From contig QBML01000025.1 in the NCBI GenBank assembly GCA_003242085.1, positions 1 to 64,000 on the forward strand: DNA of 64,000 nt. The letters are read 5' to 3'. Below the pieces are notes generated by a model that was not told the origin of the DNA, ran no database searches, and saw only the letters and a list, made by a program, of their open reading frames with translations. This DNA comes from Pseudanabaena frigida. Its GTDB lineage: Bacteria; Cyanobacteriota; Cyanobacteriia; Pseudanabaenales; Pseudanabaenaceae. Below are positions 9,181 through 22,300 of this stretch, one piece after another (position 1 is the stretch's first letter; each line of letters opens with the position of its first letter). Both the position numbers and the translations under genes were made by a program.

Positions 9181-9663
9181 TTAATTTAATTCTGCGAACT
9201 CTTGGGAGTATAGCTGCGATAGAAACTCGTAGTTTATATTTTTACCTATGCCTGTTGCACTGATTGCTGGGGGATACATCAATTCATAGGCAACGGGTAA
9301 AATAATTCCAGCAGCTAATGCTATAAAGCCTAAAATGGTGAGATTTTTAAAGAGACAAATCCCCATAATGGCAACTCCAGACAGTGGTCCTAAATATTGC
9401 CAAATCTGTTTCCAGAAGTGATATCTTTTCAAACCTTTCTTACATTGATGACATACTTCTGGTTTGAGTGTAATTCTTCCGTTACTACCGATCCTACTGG
9501 TATCGAGAATAACATCTACTACATCTTCTGCTAGTGACTGGGGTGGGTTCGCAATTACGATTTTTAACTCGGCGATCGCATCAGGATTAGGGGATTCACA
9601 AACAACGCAACGGTGAGGAAATTTGGCATTTTGGAAAAATGAAAGAGCGATGTCGTGGGTCAT
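9181..9663 (-). CDS. Zinc-ribbon-like membrane protein, unknown function
   Basis: The start chosen is ATG 9663, preceded by a good Shine-Dalgarno (GAGAGGAAAT); this gives 160 aa beginning MTHDIALSFFQNAKFP. An upstream ATG at 9747 would add 28 untypical residues. Two CxxC pairs (CVVCESPNPD and CHQCKKGLKRY) could bind zinc. Two adjacent hydrophobic segments (YLGPLSGVAIMGICLF and ILGFIALAAGIILPVAYELM) follow. The predicted form is a cytosolic metal-binding head anchored by a helical hairpin. The family is not recognised. Confidence 0.7.
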   Translation of the reverse strand: MTHDIALSFFQNAKFPHRCVVCESPNPDAIAELKIVIANPPQSLAEDVVDVILDTSRIGSNGRITLKPEVCHQCKKGLKRYHFWKQIWQYLGPLSGVAIMGICLFKNLTILGFIALAAGIILPVAYELMYPPAISATGIGKNINYEFLSQLYSQEFAELN

Positions 9664-9790
9664 GATTAGATTTCCTCTCGCGACTGATACTTTATAGCGA
9701 TCGTATCGTAACCCATTCCCATGATGATTTTTTAGTGCTTGAAGCAAAAGTTGAAAAAGTCAGTAAAGTTGAAAAAGTCAGTAAATTTAT

Positions 9791-10297
9791 CTAGTCTCGG
9801 TGAAAACTATCAGACTGCCATAATAAGGGATTATTGGCGATGTATTGGCGTAGGCGATCGCAGGATTCGTGATCGCGGATAATGCGATCATAGTAATTTC
9901 TTTGCCATAACCTACCTATAAATGGTTGCCATTGTTCCTGATTAACGCCATGACGATATTTTGTGGTTGTGAAGGATTTGAATCGATGTACGATTTCTCC
10001 TAATGTCATCACAGGTTCTATTTGTGATGATTTCAGAATGATAATGCCATGTATGTGATTGGGCATTATTACAAAGGCATCTAATTCTAGATTTGGATAA
10101 TGGAATGGCATTTCTTCCCAAATTGTTTGCACCATTGTTCCCGCAGGGTTTGGGTGCATGATGCTATCGGCGATCGCGCCTAATAAGAGTTGGCGATGGT
10201 TGATGCAAATGGTGATGAAATATGCGCCTGCCTGTGAATAGTCGTATCCTTTGAGACGAATGGAACTGCGATGATGTATTTCTGGATTGTATAGCAT
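9791..10297 (-). CDS. REP-associated tyrosine transposase (RAYT, IS200-like Y1)
   Basis: A 168-aa Y1 HUH-type transposase. The HUH motif is HIH at residues 81-83 in VIMPNHIHGIII. The catalytic tyrosine is expected in WQRNYYDRIIRD (about residues 131-142). The N-terminal RSSIRLKGYDYSQAGAYFIT is characteristic of RAYTs, which are domesticated single-copy relatives of IS200 that mobilise REP hairpins by single-strand cutting. Three copies of a GTAG-containing palindromic repeat lie just upstream (10376-10427, 10551-10602, 10695-10735), which is the arrangement called a REPtron. The gene is complete and has no IS-type terminal inverted repeats. Confidence 0.9.
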   Translation of the reverse strand: MLYNPEIHHRSSIRLKGYDYSQAGAYFITICINHRQLLLGAIADSIMHPNPAGTMVQTIWEEMPFHYPNLELDAFVIMPNHIHGIIILKSSQIEPVMTLGEIVHRFKSFTTTKYRHGVNQEQWQPFIGRLWQRNYYDRIIRDHESCDRLRQYIANNPLLWQSDSFHRD

Positions 10298-10351
10298 GGT
10301 GCAATTTTTGTGGTGATCGCGATTTTATCAACACATTAGAAAATTTTCGCC

Positions 10352-10453
10352 GTATTTGGGGATTATTGGAGATCGGCGTAGAAGGGGCGAGCACGGGGGC
10401 ATCGCCCCTACCGATGATATTTTAAATTACGAATATCTGTTTGTGTGAATTTT
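10352..10453 (+). repeat. REP-like repeat copy 1
   Basis: The 52-bp core 10376-10427 (beginning GCGTAGAAGGGGCGAGCACG and containing the complementary stretches GGGGC and GCCCC and the end GCCCCTACC) is identical to copy 2. The flanks also match: TATTTGGGGATT upstream and a partial match to about 10453 downstream. Read on the opposite strand it starts GTAGGGGCGATGCCCC, a GTAG tetranucleotide followed by a hairpin, as in REPs served by RAYTs. It lies 55 bp upstream of the RAYT start. Confidence 0.85.
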
Positions 10454-10526
10454 GTGGGAATGGGGCGATCGCAATTTTACCGCCGCATTGGGGGATTGTT
10501 CGTGATCCGTGAAAACGGTGCACCCA

Positions 10527-10632
10527 GTATTTGGGGATTGTTGATGATCTGCGTAGAAGGGGCGAGCACGGGGGCATCGCCCCTACCGATGATATTTTAA
10601 ATGGTAAATATCGGTTTATGTGAATTTTGTGA
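10527..10632 (+). repeat. REP-like repeat copy 2
   Basis: A direct repeat of copy 1, displaced by 175 bp, with a 52-bp identical core at 10551-10602. Its upstream and downstream flanks are similar but diverged, so the duplicated unit is roughly 100 bp. Confidence 0.85.
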
Positions 10633-10664
10633 TTTGTGATTTGTGATGATCACAAATCACAAAT
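10632..10664. repeat. Perfect 16-bp palindrome with a 1-nt centre
   Basis: The arms ATTTGTGATTTGTGAT (10632-10647) and its complement (10649-10664) are separated by a single G. It lies between REP-like copies 2 and 3, which are in inverted orientation, so it may be part of a larger cruciform-prone composite. Confidence 0.7.
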
Positions 10665-10694
10665 AGAATGGAAACAAATTTTATCATTTCACCC

Positions 10695-10735
10695 GTAGGG
10701 GCGATGCCCCCGTGCTCGCCCTTCTACGCAGATCA
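10695..10735 (-). repeat. REP-like repeat copy 3, inverted
   Basis: The same core as copies 1 and 2 in the opposite orientation (starting GTAGGGGCGATGCCCCCGTG), with one G missing near its end. The flank read on the minus strand again contains GGGGATTGT. It lies downstream of the caspase-like gene. Confidence 0.8.
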
Positions 10736-10888
10736 CCGATGATTCATGACCGCACAATCCCCAATTTCATGAACGGATTTTAGGGTTGAAAAAAAATTGA
10801 TCGTCTAACGGCGAAGGGACTGACAAAGAAGTGTAAAGAAATATGAAGAAGTGAAAGGGCTGAGGCAAAAGAACAGAGAAGGGAGTCC

Positions 10889-13786
10889 TTACCGCACAAC
10901 ACACACAACCCGAAAACCGTAGTTGTCATCTTGAATACGCGCGTTGAAGCTGTAGCGATGTGCAGACCGACAATACCTATCATTGCTGAACCACGACCCA
11001 CCACGCAGCAGCTTTTTTGTTTCGTCATCTTCATGATTCTTAATATCTTTTGCCCAAATCTGTGAAACTTTTGGCGCTTCTTCATAACTGTCATGCCAAT
11101 CATCGGCGCACCATTCCCAAACATTGCCATGCATATCGTAAAGCCCCCAAGCATTAGGTTGTTTTTGTCCTACAAGATGAGTACCGTTATTGTTTTGCTT
11201 TAGTCGTTCTCAATATCGATTATTATCTTTATCCACTTCCTCCCAAATACGATCTGTATCGATCATGCGATCACCGCTATTGTTCCCATACCAACCATAG
11301 TCTTCCAACTGGCTAACATAATCACCAAAGCAATATTCATTATATTCTTCTGCTCCTGCACGACAGGTATATTCCCATTCCGCCTCACTAGGCAAACGAT
11401 AACTCTCTCCAGTCAGTTGTGATAGCCTCGCACAAAATTCTTGAGCTTCGTACCAAGTGACTTGCTCCACAGGTTTATTACCGCCGCGATGATAGGAAGG
11501 ATTTAGGCTCAAATCGATCTCGACCTTAGGCGACATCGCCACAGTTCGCCATTGCGCCTGAGTAACAGGATATTTACCCATCTGAAACGCGTTTACCGTG
11601 ACTTGGTGATAGGGCTTTTCATAGTCATTACCTTTCCCATCAGGCGATCCCATCCAAAACGTACCGCTAGGAATATCAACCATTTCAGGCAAATTCGCAA
11701 GATCAAGCCAAGGCTTATATTTATAACGATTGCGCTGCACAAAATTCTGTTGCTCAGGCGAGAGGTAATCATTAATCGCCACTTCCACTTCCTCAATTTG
11801 AGCCACCACACCTTCAGGCAACAAGAACTTGTCCTGATCCAACGCCCGATCGCATTCATCAAAGGCATCCTTCACCCGATCGCAAAGTCTTCTCAAATCG
11901 CGATCCTCAGATCGCCACTCAACAAACATTTGCCAACCATCCATCAAAGCCTCGTGCGCCAAATCCACAAAAGCAACATTATTCTCATCACTCGCCACCA
12001 ATAGCCGCCCATCAGCCCCCGCAAAAATTTCTAATAGATTAGCGATCGCCTCTCGATCAGCCTCCGATCTCGCCATCCCTAATAAAAACTGCTTCGACTG
12101 CCGCTGCCTTGTATCCCTAACATCCTGCCCCGTCCGCACCAACTTCAAAAACAACCGTTTCGCCCACTTGCGCTCCTCATCCGATCGCAATACTTCCTCA
12201 TACAACCGCTTAGCATGACGATCCAACGCGCCGCGTAACTTGCCCATCTCTAAATAGGCAACCAAGGTCAATCGGTGATTTTGACGATCGCGGCGTTCCC
12301 ATAACTCTGTCAGCGCAAACTCCAATAACGGCAAACTATTTGTCTCAGCTTCCACATCCTCACAAATTGCCTCTAGCAAACCCTCTGCGAGATCGTAGCC
12401 TTGCATTTGCGCGGGCTTAGCGATCGCCTCTTTCATCTCTGACAGTTCTAACGGCACTAACCAAAACACGCGATCGCGCTGGATTAACTTTGCCAAATCA
12501 GAATATTGCAACGCCTGTTCCACAAAATCTGCTCTCATGGTTGTCGCGATCGTTAAGTGCCCCTCTTGCTCGGCTCCTTCCACCAACAACCGTATAAAGT
12601 CTTGTCGTTCCTGCTCACTCGCACAAATCGTAAACAACTCCTCAAACTGATCCACCACCAGCAAAACTCGCGGCGATCCTTCAGGCAAAATCGCATTCAA
12701 ACCTTCCGACTCTAGCCGCGCATAAGCCTTCTGAATTTCCGAAGGCAACTTATAAAACTGCTGTACCAACGATTGCTTTAACATCGTCAATGGATTTGCC
12801 CAAGGCTTAATCGGCGGCATTACACACCAGCCCTGCTTTGCCAAATTCGTCATCAAACCCGCTTTCACTAGCGATGATTTGCCGCTACCAGAAGCCCCAA
12901 TTACAGGCACAAATCGCGATTTTTCAATCTTTCTCAACAACAAATCAAGCTGCTCTTCTCTACCATAAAAATACTGAGCAGTCTTTTGATCGAAGGCTTC
13001 CAATCCTACATAAGGACAAGCTTCATTCACCACAGGCGCAAGATTGCCCCTAGTTTTCTCAATCAAAGTAATCGCACCACCCATCGCCGATCGCACCACC
13101 TCTTGACCGCTTTGCTTTAACTTCTGCGATACCTCACTAAACAAACTATCAAGATCCACCGCTTCCCCAGCCATAACCCTTGCCCGTAGCACATCCAACA
13201 CCGCCGCCGTAAAAATGCCATGCTCCGCACCCTCACGCGATCGCTCAAACCCACGACAAGCCGCCATTAAGTAATAATTCTTCTTGTCATTAAAAATCTT
13301 CTGCATCGCCTGATATTGACTGCTCTCAATCAAATTCCCCGCATGACAACAATCCAGCAACACCACCAAATTATTTAACTCCGACCTCGCCACCAGCTTG
13401 GTAAAAACATCAAAACTCAAAGCATTCTGACCATCCTTACCCGCATCCGTCGCTGCCAAATAACCAATCTCATCGCCAACTACATCAGGGACAACAAACC
13501 CATGTCCCGCAAAATAAATCAGCGCATCTTTGCCCTTAGCTTACTCTAACAAAAAAGTTTTCAGCTTAGTTGTGAGATCGATCCCCTTCACCTCTTTCTT
13601 CGGATCGCGATCCAACTCATAGCGATTTTCATCCCCTGCGGCAAGCTTGCGCGGCAAAGGCTCGATCGCATAATGTCCATGTTGCTCCAAGATTTCCGCG
13701 ATCGCCCCTGCATCATTAACGGTTTTTTCAAGATTACGAAAATTGCTATAACGAGCAATGCCAATAACAAGGGCAGATCGAGCCAT
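10889..13786 (-). pseudogene. Caspase-nSTAND1-SUMF conflict protein with two in-frame stops
   Basis: One frame runs from ATG 13786 to 10889 (965 residues if read through), interrupted only by TAA at 13541-13543 (codon 82) and TGA at 11210-11212 (codon 859). Domains in order: caspase/peptidase C14 (1 to about 240), with His95 in YFAGHG and Cys147 in LLDCCHAG; nSTAND1 NTPase (about 255-620), with Walker A GASGSGKSS (297-305), Walker B VLLVVDQFEE (374-383) and the closing LAHEALMDGW; and SUMF/FGE-like domain (about 700-965), with LPSEAEWEYTCRAGA, GLYDMHGNVWEWC and LRGGSWF. Both stops lie in otherwise conserved sequence, and CAA and TGG would be natural precursors. This points to recent inactivation, assembly error or recoding. 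The first stop removes both catalytic residues from the N-terminal product. Such proteins are thought to act as NTP-gated suicide or defence proteases. Confidence 0.85.
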
Positions 13787-13872
13787 AATTCTTTGTTTAG
13801 AAATCTTTAAAAGTGAAAAGCAAGCGATCGGTTATCCTTGCAGAATAGTCCTATAACTATGGAGTGGTCAAG

Positions 13873-14229
13873 ATGTCAGAAGTGCAAGAGCTAGTTGTCA
13901 AAGACGAAAACGGCGAAGAATTCTCAATTTACATCGCACCCAAAGAACCCTACAACGAACCCGACTCAGAAGAAGGATATCGCGACAACTTACCCACCGT
14001 TGACCTCAAAAAAGTCCATGACACCATTCGCGGCTACACCACCTATGCGATCAGCGCATTTCGGAACTTAGGATCTGCCGATGTTGAGAAACTTACCCTC
14101 AAATTCAGTCTCAAGATTGGTGGTAAAGCTGGCATTCCCATGTTGACTGAAGGCTCTGCTGAAAGTAATTTTGAGATTCAAGTAGAATGCAAATTTCCAC
14201 TGAAACCCTCTTCTACTCCGCAAAGTTAA
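13873..14229 (+). CDS. Trypco1-like (CU044_2847-type) small protein
   Basis: The start chosen is ATG 13873, with GGAG at 13861-13864; a GTG three codons upstream is possible. The 118-aa product begins MSEVQELVVKDENGEEFSI. It has a beta-rich acidic N-terminus, a helix with IRGYTTYAISAFRNLGSADV, the strand LTLKFSLKIGGKAGIPMLTE, and an ending ESNFEIQVECKFPL. This pattern matches the trypsin-co-occurring domain 1 family as I remember it, in which LxFGxKxxGxAG-type strands precede a final strand. Those domains accompany trypsin, caspase and STAND proteins in bacterial conflict systems. It is divergent from the caspase gene, 86 bp away, and is probably its functional partner. Confidence 0.7.
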   Translation: MSEVQELVVKDENGEEFSIYIAPKEPYNEPDSEEGYRDNLPTVDLKKVHDTIRGYTTYAISAFRNLGSADVEKLTLKFSLKIGGKAGIPMLTEGSAESNFEIQVECKFPLKPSSTPQS

Positions 14230-14320
14230 ACATTCATAAACCATCAGCATTCTCAGACACCAAAATTCGCTATAGTTTTTGATGGTGTGGCTAGTAGCTT
14301 GCTCAAAACAAGAAAGAACT

Positions 14321-15550
14321 ATGAAACTAAATCCGATCGCGATCGCTGCTCTAATTACTAGTATTATTGGACTTTCGGCATTTGATGGATATTCTGCTCA
14401 AGTCATTAATTCGTCGAAAGTTATTCTATCTCAGACTGATATTCCCTCAGTCACACCTCAACAGGCGATCGCGCGTCTATTAAATTCTCCAAAGATTCAA
14501 GCTGAATGGTTTGCGCCTGAATTTTTAGAAAAAGTGCCACTTCCTAAAATGGAAGAAATTATTGCTAATCTACAAATCGCAGTTGGGAAATGTCAGCAAA
14601 TTCAAGGTCAGGATGTCAGCTATTTGGCAACTTGCGATCGGGGCAATATTCCAGTCAAAATTAAGCTCAATTCCGAAGGAAAAATTACCGCTATCTTTTT
14701 AGCCAAACATCAACAAACTTTCGAGCAAGCCGTATCGAGTTTTAAAGCATTAGAAGGGGACGTAAGCCTGCTAGTAATGGAAGGCAAGAATCAACGAGCA
14801 GGAATCCGTGCAGACGATCCGATGGCAGTTGGCTCTGCGTTTAAGCTAGCAGTTCTCAATGCACTAAAAAATCAAATCGCTGAAGGAAAAATTACTTGGG
14901 GACAGGTAGTTCCTCTTCAAGCTAAACAACAGAGTTTTCCCACAGGGATTTTGCAAGATTGGTCAGCAGGTTCTCTCTTAACAGTCGAAACTCTAGCAAG
15001 TTTGATGATCTCCATCAGCGATAACACTGCAACCGATGCGCTAATCGATTTAGTTGGCAAAAAAGAAGTAGAACGTTTCACCCTTCGTAATCGTCCATTT
15101 CTTAAAACTCGCGAAATGTTTACATTGCGCGGCTCCAAAAATACTGAACTATTAAAAAAATATCGACTTGCCAATACCAGCGATCGCTTACAGATTTTGA
15201 AGACAATCTCAAGTCAAGAGCTACCTGATATTTTAGAATTTGTGAAAAGCCCCAAAATTTCTCTAGATATCGAATGGATTTTTACAGTTCGTGAGTTATG
15301 TTCGCTTATTGAAGATGTCGCTGATTTACCTTTAATGTCCTTTAATTCAGGATTAGCCGATCCGACTGGATGGAAAAAGGTTGCTTTTAAAGGTGGCTCA
15401 GATGCTGGTGTGCTCAACTTCACAACTCTACTTCAGCCCAAAAACGGTAAATCCTATTGCATCTCAGTAACATGGAATCACACTGAACCTTTGAGTGAAG
15501 CCAAGTTAGCAACTCTATATAAAGGATTAATCGACACCCTATCGAAATAG
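14321..15550 (+). CDS. Serine hydrolase of the class A beta-lactamase fold
   Basis: The start chosen is ATG 14321 (MKLNPIAIAALITSIIGLSA), which gives a signal-peptide-like N-terminus and 409 aa; ATG 14279 would place extra residues ahead of it. The catalytic motifs are SAFK (Ser172, Lys175), SDN (233-235) and KGG (357-359), which correspond to SxxK, SDN and KTG of beta-lactamases. A roughly 110-residue domain precedes the hydrolase part. Cyanobacterial proteins of this kind may act as carboxypeptidases or esterases, and substrate activity against beta-lactams cannot be read from sequence. It acts in the periplasm by inference. Confidence 0.88.
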   Translation: MKLNPIAIAALITSIIGLSAFDGYSAQVINSSKVILSQTDIPSVTPQQAIARLLNSPKIQAEWFAPEFLEKVPLPKMEEIIANLQIAVGKCQQIQGQDVSYLATCDRGNIPVKIKLNSEGKITAIFLAKHQQTFEQAVSSFKALEGDVSLLVMEGKNQRAGIRADDPMAVGSAFKLAVLNALKNQIAEGKITWGQVVPLQAKQQSFPTGILQDWSAGSLLTVETLASLMISISDNTATDALIDLVGKKEVERFTLRNRPFLKTREMFTLRGSKNTELLKKYRLANTSDRLQILKTISSQELPDILEFVKSPKISLDIEWIFTVRELCSLIEDVADLPLMSFNSGLADPTGWKKVAFKGGSDAGVLNFTTLLQPKNGKSYCISVTWNHTEPLSEAKLATLYKGLIDTLSK

Positions 15551-15563
15551 GGTAGTGCTAATT

Positions 15564-15599
15564 TAGAGGCTAGGCATAGCGCTTTACGTCTAGCCTCTA
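15564..15599. terminator. Bidirectional terminator hairpin
   Basis: Inverted repeat TAGAGGCTAG (15564-15573) / CTAGCCTCTA (15590-15599) between the stops of two convergent genes (15550 and 15608). It can serve both. Confidence 0.7.
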
Positions 15600-15607
15600 G
15601 ATATGGA

Positions 15608-21272: not shown

Positions 21273-22300
21273 TATAGCAAATTTCAATCTAGCGAGGTAT
21301 ATTAAAGAGGTATATTGTTCAGTTAGGATTCAGGATGAGAGCATATTCAATAGACTTGAGAGAAAAAATAGTCAAACTTTACGAAGAAGGCAAAATATCA
21401 CAGCGAAAATTAGCCAAGCAATTTGATGTTGCGCTAAGTTTTATCGAAAAGTTAATTAAGCAATATCGACAGACAGGCAGTGTTGAGCCAAAGAAGCGAA
21501 TAGTGCAAACCCCAACAAAACTAAACCATGAGCAGCTAATGGTACTAGAGAAATTAGTTGAGGAAAATAATGATGCAACGCTTGACGAGTTAAGTCAGAT
21601 GTTGCACGAGCAAACTGGAGTGCTGATTAGTCGAGTCACTGTAGCTAGAATGCTCAAGAAGCTAAATATAACCTTCAAAAAAAACATTGCATCCAACCGA
21701 AAAAGAGAGCGAAAGAGTTCAGCAACAGCGTTATGAATTCTGGCAATCAGTGCGAGGAATCCTTGCCAAGGACATGATCTTTATTGATGAATCAGGAATA
21801 AATTTAGCTCTAACTAGATTGTATGCTCGTTCACCCAAGGGAGAAAGAGCACGATGCTCAAGACCACTCAAACGGGGTTAAAATGTTTCTGTGATTGGTG
21901 CGATAGGGCTTAAAGGCTTGTTGACCCAAGTTAGTATCTTAGGGGCTGCTGATAGTCTTACCTTTGAAGCTTTTATTGCCACTAAACTAGTTCCTCAGCT
22001 TTGGACTGGTGCTTATGTGTTTATGGATAATTGCTCTATTCATAAGGGAGAAAATATCGAAGCTTTGATTGCGGCGTCTGGGGCAACCCTAATCTATCTA
22101 CCTCCTTATTCTCCTGACTTTTCACCAATTGAGAATTGTTGGTCAAAGATTAAGAGTATTCTGCGTTCTATGGGGGCAGGAAATTATCCTGATTTGCTCA
22201 AATCCCTTGATCGTGCTTTTAATAATCTTTCTCCTTCAGATTTTCTTTCTTGGTTTACTCACTCTTGTTACTGTACCTCTCTAGATTGATGTTTGCTATA
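21273..22300 (+). mobile_element. IS630-type insertion sequence
   Basis: The element is bounded by 27-bp imperfect terminal inverted repeats, 21273-21299 (TATAGCAAATTTCAATCTAG...) and 22274-22300 (24 of 27 positions match), with TA at each outer end as expected for TA target duplication in the IS630/Tc1 group. It carries one transposase gene, damaged as described separately. The right end shares its TATA with the start of a palindromic repeat (22297 onward). Confidence 0.85.
21335..22289 (+). pseudogene. IS630-family DDE transposase, split by frameshift and stop
   Basis: Three pieces make up one transposase. 21335-21736 encodes the N-terminal HTH part (MRAYSIDLREKIVKLYEEGK). The frame then moves by one base at the A8 run 21677-21684 into 21687-21881 (FIDESGINLAL, first catalytic Asp). 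A TAA at 21879-21881 interrupts the second piece, and the same frame continues to 22289 (VFMDNCSIHK, second Asp; YSPDFSPIENCWSKIK, Glu). The poly-A site may be a programmed slippage site, as in other IS630 elements. The TAA falls where KRG is normally followed by K or Q, so this copy is probably inactive. Confidence 0.85.

What the first reader, a model, noticed from the sequence alone, without database searches (positions are those of the whole stretch)
10889..13786. Caspase-nSTAND1-SUMF gene broken only by two in-frame stops
A 965-codon frame with three intact domain modules carries TAA at codon 82 and TGA at codon 859 and no frameshift. The first stop sits just before the catalytic His95 and Cys147. 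Readthrough keeps all motifs, so this is either very recent loss, base-calling error, or translational recoding of a self-destructive protein.
Basis: partly seen in the sequence, partly recalled or inferred. Interest (0 to 1): 0.72.

Follow-up and report, generated by a model that had tools for sequence, protein, structure and literature searches.

The report
Freshly broken cyanobacterial immune-like caspase gene
A bacterial "self-destruct" type protease gene, of a kind whose sensor tip is deliberately mutated in related strains, seems to have been switched off very recently in this strain by two stop signals that the relatives examined lack; it is most likely an ordinary young broken gene, not a new way to read stop codons.

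Summary
In detail: minus strand 13786-10889 is one 965-codon frame (orthocaspase, nSTAND1 NTPase, FGE/SUMF lectin-like domain) interrupted only by TAA (codon 82) and TGA (codon 859). The genome is Pseudanabaena-like. Seven of seven same-genus relatives examined that have the fused caspase are open at codon 82. Four of four that have the codon-859 segment are sense there; four lack the segment. So the stops look private. One relative (UWO311) is broken independently by a frame change. Constraint on the caspase and NTPase parts is not relaxed, so the loss is recent.

New context: the last ~100 bases are a diversity-generating-retroelement (DGR) variable region. Variation sits in codon positions 1 and 2, and a relative's template matches with A-biased differences. 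I found neither such a template nor a DGR reverse transcriptase in this genome, so the gene looks like an orphan DGR target. Its 3' module seems exchanged. A Trypco1 gene stands head-to-head with it, as in 8 of 8 related loci. These parts are of published kinds. Recoding is very unlikely; assembly error is disfavoured but not closed. Two of seven caspase genes here carry nonsense codons, against 1 of 112 elsewhere in the genus.

The parts
10889..13786 (-). Caspase-nSTAND1-FGS reading frame, 965 codons, interrupted in frame
13109..13780 (-). Orthocaspase (Peptidase_C14) domain; His95 at 13504-13502, Cys147 at 13348-13346
13541..13543 (-). In-frame TAA, codon 82; frame open there in 7 of 7 relatives examined that have the fused caspase
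11849..13015 (-). nSTAND1 NTPase domain (Walker A-like GASGSGKSS 12898-12872; Walker B-like LLVVDQFEE 12664-12638)
10904..11692 (-). FGE-sulfatase/SUMF (FGS) C-type-lectin-like domain
11210..11212 (-). In-frame TGA, codon 859, in a segment present in 4 of 8 relatives aligned and sense in all 4
10904..11005 (-). DGR-type variable region (RGGSW...GFRVV) at the end of the FGS domain
13864..14229 (+). Divergent neighbour, Trypco1 (PF19493), intact; a homologue lies divergently beside the gene in 8 of 8 related loci compared
   Evidence: gene positions
11837..11989 (-). Approximate crossover of the mosaic (codons ~600-650): lw0831-like upstream, G022-like downstream
   Evidence: identity by bins; two small trees

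Best explanation
The gene is a very recently inactivated copy of a Trypco1-linked caspase-nSTAND1-FGS conflict (self-destruct type) protein. In intact relatives the FGS tip most likely senses an invader or ligand, the nSTAND1 NTPase switches or oligomerises, and the N-terminal orthocaspase then cleaves targets (inferred from architecture and literature). The tip is of the type that a DGR rewrites, and whole DGRs stand beside such tips in several genomes of the genus (shown by sequence). In this strain no DGR template or DGR reverse transcriptase was found, the FGS module seems to have been exchanged by recombination, and two nonsense codons not seen in relatives now separate the start from the catalytic pair and the NTPase from the variable tip. 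Without readthrough no product from an ATG, GTG or TTG start can hold both the pair and the tip (shown from the frame; expression not tested).
For: Private stops: codon 82 is sense in G019, G003, G022, G012, G005 (alignment), and the frame is open across it in G008 and G017: 7 of 7. Codon 859 is sense in G022, G020, G015, G008 (4 of 4); the segment is absent in G019, G003, G012, G005. Recent: over codons 1-640, outgroup G003, the own branch has 35 silent and 13 replacement changes against 28 and 18 on the G019 branch; neutral N/S would be 2.72; at most 9 extra neutral changes (one-sided 95%). The Trypco1 partner frame is intact. Independent loss: G008 is split by a frame change. In 26 genomes 3 of 119 caspase places have internal stops, 2 of the 7 here (Fisher p 0.009). 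DGR signature: pairwise mismatch by codon position 0.48/0.41/0.26 in the tip against 0.13/0.12/0.29 in the FGS before it, 9 sequences. Against the G022 template, own tip: A same/different 20/14, non-A 85/15, p 0.003; within G022 13/20 against 99/1, p 4e-14.
Against: A clean downstream frame is also what readthrough or an assembly error would give. No reads, transcripts or peptides were available. With other outgroups the own branch is not lower than its sister: G022 as outgroup, own 27 silent/14 replacement and G019 22/10; with G008 and G003 together over about 460 codons, own 38/28 and G019 38/24; own against G019 with G008 alone 25/18. All stay far below neutral, but the bound of 9 rests on the G003 counts only. 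The own tip is only moderately A-biased against a foreign template. The caspase count was not planned beforehand and sees only stops inside the domain match.
Confidence: 0.82

Rival explanations
1. One or both stops are base errors or minority-strain consensus in the assembly; the gene is intact in the cell.
For: The frame is otherwise clean and constrained. The assembly is a 67-contig draft and no reads are available.
Against: Random errors dense enough to give one stop in codons 1-640 (about 21) are rejected on the G003 counts (2dLL 8.1). An unselected 482 kb of the same genome gave 1 candidate in-frame stop, against 0 in 400 kb of G019 and 2 in 400 kb of G022. Two stops in this gene and two in the C13 caspase would be needed, all in frame. 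A rare or special kind of error is not excluded.
Confidence: 0.11
2. A shortened product is kept: an internal TTG start (13459) gives a 749-aa nSTAND1 plus partial FGS protein working as a regulator or decoy.
For: The 749-aa frame exists. In G020 and G015 the nSTAND1-FGS part is in a frame without the fused caspase, and G020 has a separate 361-aa caspase-like frame beside it.
Against: The 749-aa frame lacks the catalytic His, and stop 2 removes the variable tip, which the G020 and G015 proteins keep. The TTG start is untested.
Confidence: 0.05
3. Programmed or conditional readthrough at both stops arms a self-destructive protein only when translation is faulty.
For: In-frame only; both flanks of both stops are coding-like; constraint is not relaxed.
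Against: No relative examined has either stop. TAA and TGA would both need reading, so no single ordinary suppressor serves. TAA, TAG and TGA end 119, 70 and 17 open stretches of 250 codons or more in the own sample. No selB match over cut-off. No Rfam recoding element in 9500-15600.
Confidence: 0.02

Closest known systems
[quoted passage not shown] passages and section 7 read)
   Same: Orthocaspase N-terminus grafted to a C-terminal lectin-like domain with a 3' variable region; remote targets, and a target without proximal reverse transcriptase, are described there.
   Different: Here neither template nor DGR reverse transcriptase was found in the genome, and the gene carries two nonsense codons. 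The word Pseudanabaena has 0 occurrences in its main text.
STAND NTPase-FGS and Trypco conflict systems (PMC7159879 and PMC8195603; passages read)
   Same: NTPase-FGS fusions, often DGR-linked (PMC8195603); peptidase effectors and Trypco1 neighbours (PMC7159879).
   Different: The PMC7159879 passages tie Trypco1 to trypsin-like peptidases, whereas here and in 8 related loci it stands beside a caspase gene.
nSTAND1-FGE DGR targets in multicellular bacteria (PMC10907252; passages read)
   Same: nSTAND1 with a C-terminal FGE variable tip; Trypco1/2 adapters and caspase-like effectors near DGR loci.
   Different: There whole DGR loci in Thiohalocapsa and others; here an orphaned and broken target.

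Membership tests
Orthocaspase (Peptidase_C14, PF00656) | Domain match with His-Cys pair | tested here: met
   69.8 bits over a cut-off of 21.4 (cut-off); GHG at 94-96, DCCHAG at 145-150; the motif is recalled
Orthocaspase (Peptidase_C14, PF00656) | Protease activity | not testable with these tools
   No expression; stop 1 precedes the pair
nSTAND1 NTPase (PF20703) | Profile match with Walker A and B | tested here: met
   E 5.6e-100; motifs
DGR target (variable protein) | Variable region at the 3' end of a lectin-like domain, variation in codon positions 1 and 2 | tested here: met
   0.48/0.41/0.26 against 0.13/0.12/0.29 over 9 sequences
DGR target (variable protein) | Adenine-biased mismatches to a template repeat | tested here: met
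   Only against the template of another genome, G022: p 0.003
DGR target (variable protein) | Template repeat in the same genome | tested here: not met
   G022 template as query: the only own match is the gene's own tip. The same query finds templates in G001, G003, G013 and others at 78-83%
DGR target (variable protein) | DGR reverse transcriptase in the same genome | tested here: not met
   One RVT_1 match, without [LIV]GxxxSQ (motif recalled). The same search finds eight motif-bearing enzymes in relatives. Hence an orphan, former target
Trypco1-linked peptidase conflict system | Adjacent Trypco1 gene | tested here: met
   E 5.7e-16; 8 of 8 related loci
Recoded (readthrough) gene | Stop conserved in frame among relatives | tested here: not met
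   0 of 7 at codon 82, 0 of 4 at codon 859
Recoded (readthrough) gene | Full-length product | not testable with these tools
   Needs peptides or a reporter
Pseudogene | Inactivating change absent from intact relatives | tested here: met
Pseudogene | Relaxed constraint or further decay | tested here: not met
   Not yet: 13 replacement, 35 silent. Read as youth, not as function

The most novel reading that the evidence does not exclude
Readthrough as a safety catch: the full caspase-NTPase-sensor is made only when the ribosome misreads both stops, so translational failure during infection would arm a protein that is otherwise off. A milder novel reading: once the diversifying DGR is lost, a fixed sensor becomes dangerous, so orphaned caspase targets are selected to be switched off.
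Probability: 0.04. Interest if true: 0.8.

Novelty: new member of a known kind. Interest (0 to 1): 0.24.

Why it matters
It shows one strain caught apparently just after losing a self-destruct type gene whose relatives are mostly intact and of a family diversified by DGRs. This allows a test of whether orphaned DGR targets with protease effectors are selectively lost. As a recoding case it matters little, because the evidence is against it.

Tried and rejected
Recoding: rejected on private stops, stop usage, no selB match over cut-off and no Rfam recoding element. The Rfam MIR8007 match at 10539-10743 is below its gathering score and lies in the repeat cluster downstream. The selB matches below cut-off are taken to be other translation GTPases; not checked.

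A DGR at the C8 reverse transcriptase: rejected; that enzyme lacks the DGR motif, and a search of the gene's end against the own stretches then held showed no template there.

Genome-wide excess of nonsense codons (error, hypermutation or suppression): suspected after a kinase at C22:54872 also showed one TAG; not supported by the coding-potential scan. At the 0.1 threshold with the start filter the scan passes 3 of the 5 stops I knew, so it undercounts.

Kinase control over the genus: the table was cut, so I used only the own-genome list (1 of 39). Stretches fetched from G005, G020 and G019 were not analysed; the G005 caspase with one TGA was not followed up. In one search the search for the G016 relative's frame printed nothing; its openness rests.

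Literature: no paper held orthocaspase + premature stop codon + cyanobacteria, or stop codon readthrough + bacterial pseudogenes + functional. Other searches. PMC13092985 and PMC3521204 were seen in listings only.

Full report
WHAT IS THERE. The minus strand 13786-10889 is a 965-codon frame with exactly two internal stops, TAA at codon 82 and TGA at codon 859, and no frame change. Pfam places an orthocaspase domain across stop 1, an nSTAND1 NTPase (E 5.6e-100) between the stops and an FGE-sulfatase (FGS/SUMF) domain across stop 2. His95 and Cys147 lie after stop 1.

WHERE. The window is contig 17, bases 1-64000, of a 5.39-Mb, 67-contig genome listed as 99.99% complete. Its closest orthologue among the genomes searched is in G019, 89% protein identity, which is Pseudanabaena sp. 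lw0831. One search also names G003 (FACHB-1998), G008 (UWO311), G005 (SR411) and G012 (Phormidium tenue FACHB-1050). That the window's own organism is a Pseudanabaena is inferred from these same-genus handles.

ARE THE STOPS SHARED? Not in what I examined. Among 58 genomes, 8 besides the own carry a clear orthologue at 54-89%, and G017 a more distant one at 44%. Codon 82 is sense in the five full-length orthologues aligned, and the frame is open across it in G008 and G017: 7 of 7. G020 and G015 have no fused caspase in that frame and say nothing. Codon 859 lies in a stretch of about 28 codons present in G022, G020, G015 and G008, sense in all four, and absent from G019, G003, G012 and G005. 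G008 is itself broken by a frame change in the nSTAND1 part (its own reads not seen). Intact copies therefore exist, and breakage has arisen at least twice.

HOW OLD? For codons 1-640, with G003 as outgroup, the own branch has 35 silent and 13 replacement changes and the G019 branch 28 and 18. Neutral change would give N/S 2.72. On these counts a profile likelihood allows at most 9 extra neutral changes (one-sided 95%); about 21, the number that goes with one random nonsense hit, is rejected (2dLL 8.1). Other outgroups are less favourable but still far from neutral. With G022: own 27/14, G019 22/10. With G008 and G003 agreeing over about 460 codons: own 38/28, G019 38/24. With G008 alone: own 25/18 (all silent/replacement). 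The stops are therefore young. This cannot tell loss from readthrough or error, because all three leave the frame constrained; the privacy of the stops speaks against readthrough.

ERROR? A coding-potential scan found 1 candidate in-frame stop (first start more than 10 codons on) in 482 kb of unselected own sequence, 0 in 400 kb of G019 and 2 in 400 kb of G022. It passes 3 of the 5 stops I knew, so it undercounts. Without the start filter the counts are 11, 14 and 8, no excess for the own genome. The genome is thus not littered with false stops, but reads are needed to close the matter.

CASPASES OF THIS GENOME. Of 119 caspase places in 26 genomes of the genus, 3 contain stops: this gene, a second own gene at C13:20771-21508 (two TAG) and one in G005 (2 of 7 against 1 of 112, Fisher p 0.009, not planned beforehand). 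The C13 gene's relative in G016 is 97% identical over the 217 residues compared and open for 341 codons. One of 39 own kinases has an internal TAG, and 1 of 9 own FGS places has a stop, this gene.

THE VARIABLE TIP. Across nine FGS ends the stretch between RGGSW and GFRVV differs mostly at codon positions 1 and 2 (0.48, 0.41, 0.26), while the FGS before it differs mostly at position 3 (0.13, 0.12, 0.29). That is the mark of DGR rewriting of AAY codons. Relatives hold whole DGRs: A-rich templates (A fraction 0.31-0.41) beside variable copies, with reverse transcriptases bearing [LI]GNLTSQ, in G003, G001 (two loci), G012, G021, G013 and G014. G004 has such an enzyme, but the one repeat copy in the stretch held has an A fraction of 0.23. 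G022 keeps a template, but the reverse transcriptase frame beside it is only 149 codons; its other three RVT_1 matches were not checked for the motif. The G022 template against its neighbour copy differs at 20 of 33 A and 1 of 100 other positions; against the own tip at 14 of 34 A and 15 of 100 others, p 0.003. In the own genome that template finds only the tip itself, and the single RVT_1 enzyme lacks the motif, as does the single G019 enzyme. The own gene looks like an orphan DGR target. Neither stop lies in the tip, so the DGR did not make them.

MOSAIC. Own against G019 identity is 0.94 (codons 1-600), 0.85 (601-645) and 0.76-0.82 after that, where G022 is nearer (0.87, 0.85, 0.86 in three bins; in codons 860-925 G005 is as near as G022). 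At the tip, codons 926-965, G019 is again slightly nearer (0.78 against 0.74). The N-half tree pairs own with G019 (support 0.40), the C-half tree own with G022 (0.94); six sequences each. The sensor module was probably exchanged. Stop 2 lies in the exchanged part; whether it came with it cannot be told.

PARTNER. The divergent gene at 13864-14229 is Trypco1, intact, with a homologue divergently beside the relatives' genes in 8 of 8 loci compared. The passages I read in PMC7159879 tie Trypco1 to trypsin-like peptidases; those in PMC10907252 list it with caspase-like peptidases as well.

MECHANISM. Shown: domains, motifs, tip signature, partner, stops, their absence from the relatives examined. 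Inferred: tip senses, NTPase switches, caspase cuts, in line with what is proposed for STAND-FGS systems and variable orthocaspases (PMC8195603 passages; PMC7517822 section 7). From the start codon this strain would make an 81-residue peptide. An internal TTG frame of 749 codons would lack the catalytic His and the tip.

VERDICT. A young, apparently private inactivation of a known kind of DGR-diversified conflict gene. Ordinary as recoding; mildly interesting as a snapshot of loss where the diversifier is missing.

Noticed in passing
L020:3751-4776 (own genome C13): Second caspase gene with two in-frame TAG codons and no frame change; 97% identical open relative in G016.
   Followed up: partly
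L158, minus strand (own genome C22:54872-55624): Ser/Thr kinase with one in-frame TAG in an otherwise clean frame.
   Followed up: partly
L090:3180-5923 minus (G022): DGR locus with an A-rich template and two variable copies, but a reverse transcriptase frame of only 149 codons.
   Followed up: partly
L086, L087, L088, L089, L091, L092, L093: DGR loci of the genus with template-variable pairs and [LI]GNLTSQ reverse transcriptases.
   Followed up: partly
L095:188-312 (G004): At the place where the similar G014 locus has its A-rich template, the copy looks itself diversified (A fraction 0.23); a rewritten template or an assembly mix.
   Followed up: no
window 9791-10743: IS200-like transposase (Y1_Tnp) and a repeat cluster just downstream of the gene; the repeats also match beside 5 of 6 relatives' genes compared.
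   Followed up: no
window 21335-22289: IS630-type transposase in two separate ORFs (HTH part and DDE_3 part), perhaps frameshifted.
   Followed up: no
L018:10804-12375 (own genome C8): 523-aa reverse transcriptase without the DGR motif, lying between two caspase genes of the same contig; perhaps a defence enzyme.
   Followed up: no
L062 (G020): A caspase-like frame and the nSTAND1-FGS frame occur as two separate neighbours, suggesting fused and split forms.
   Followed up: no
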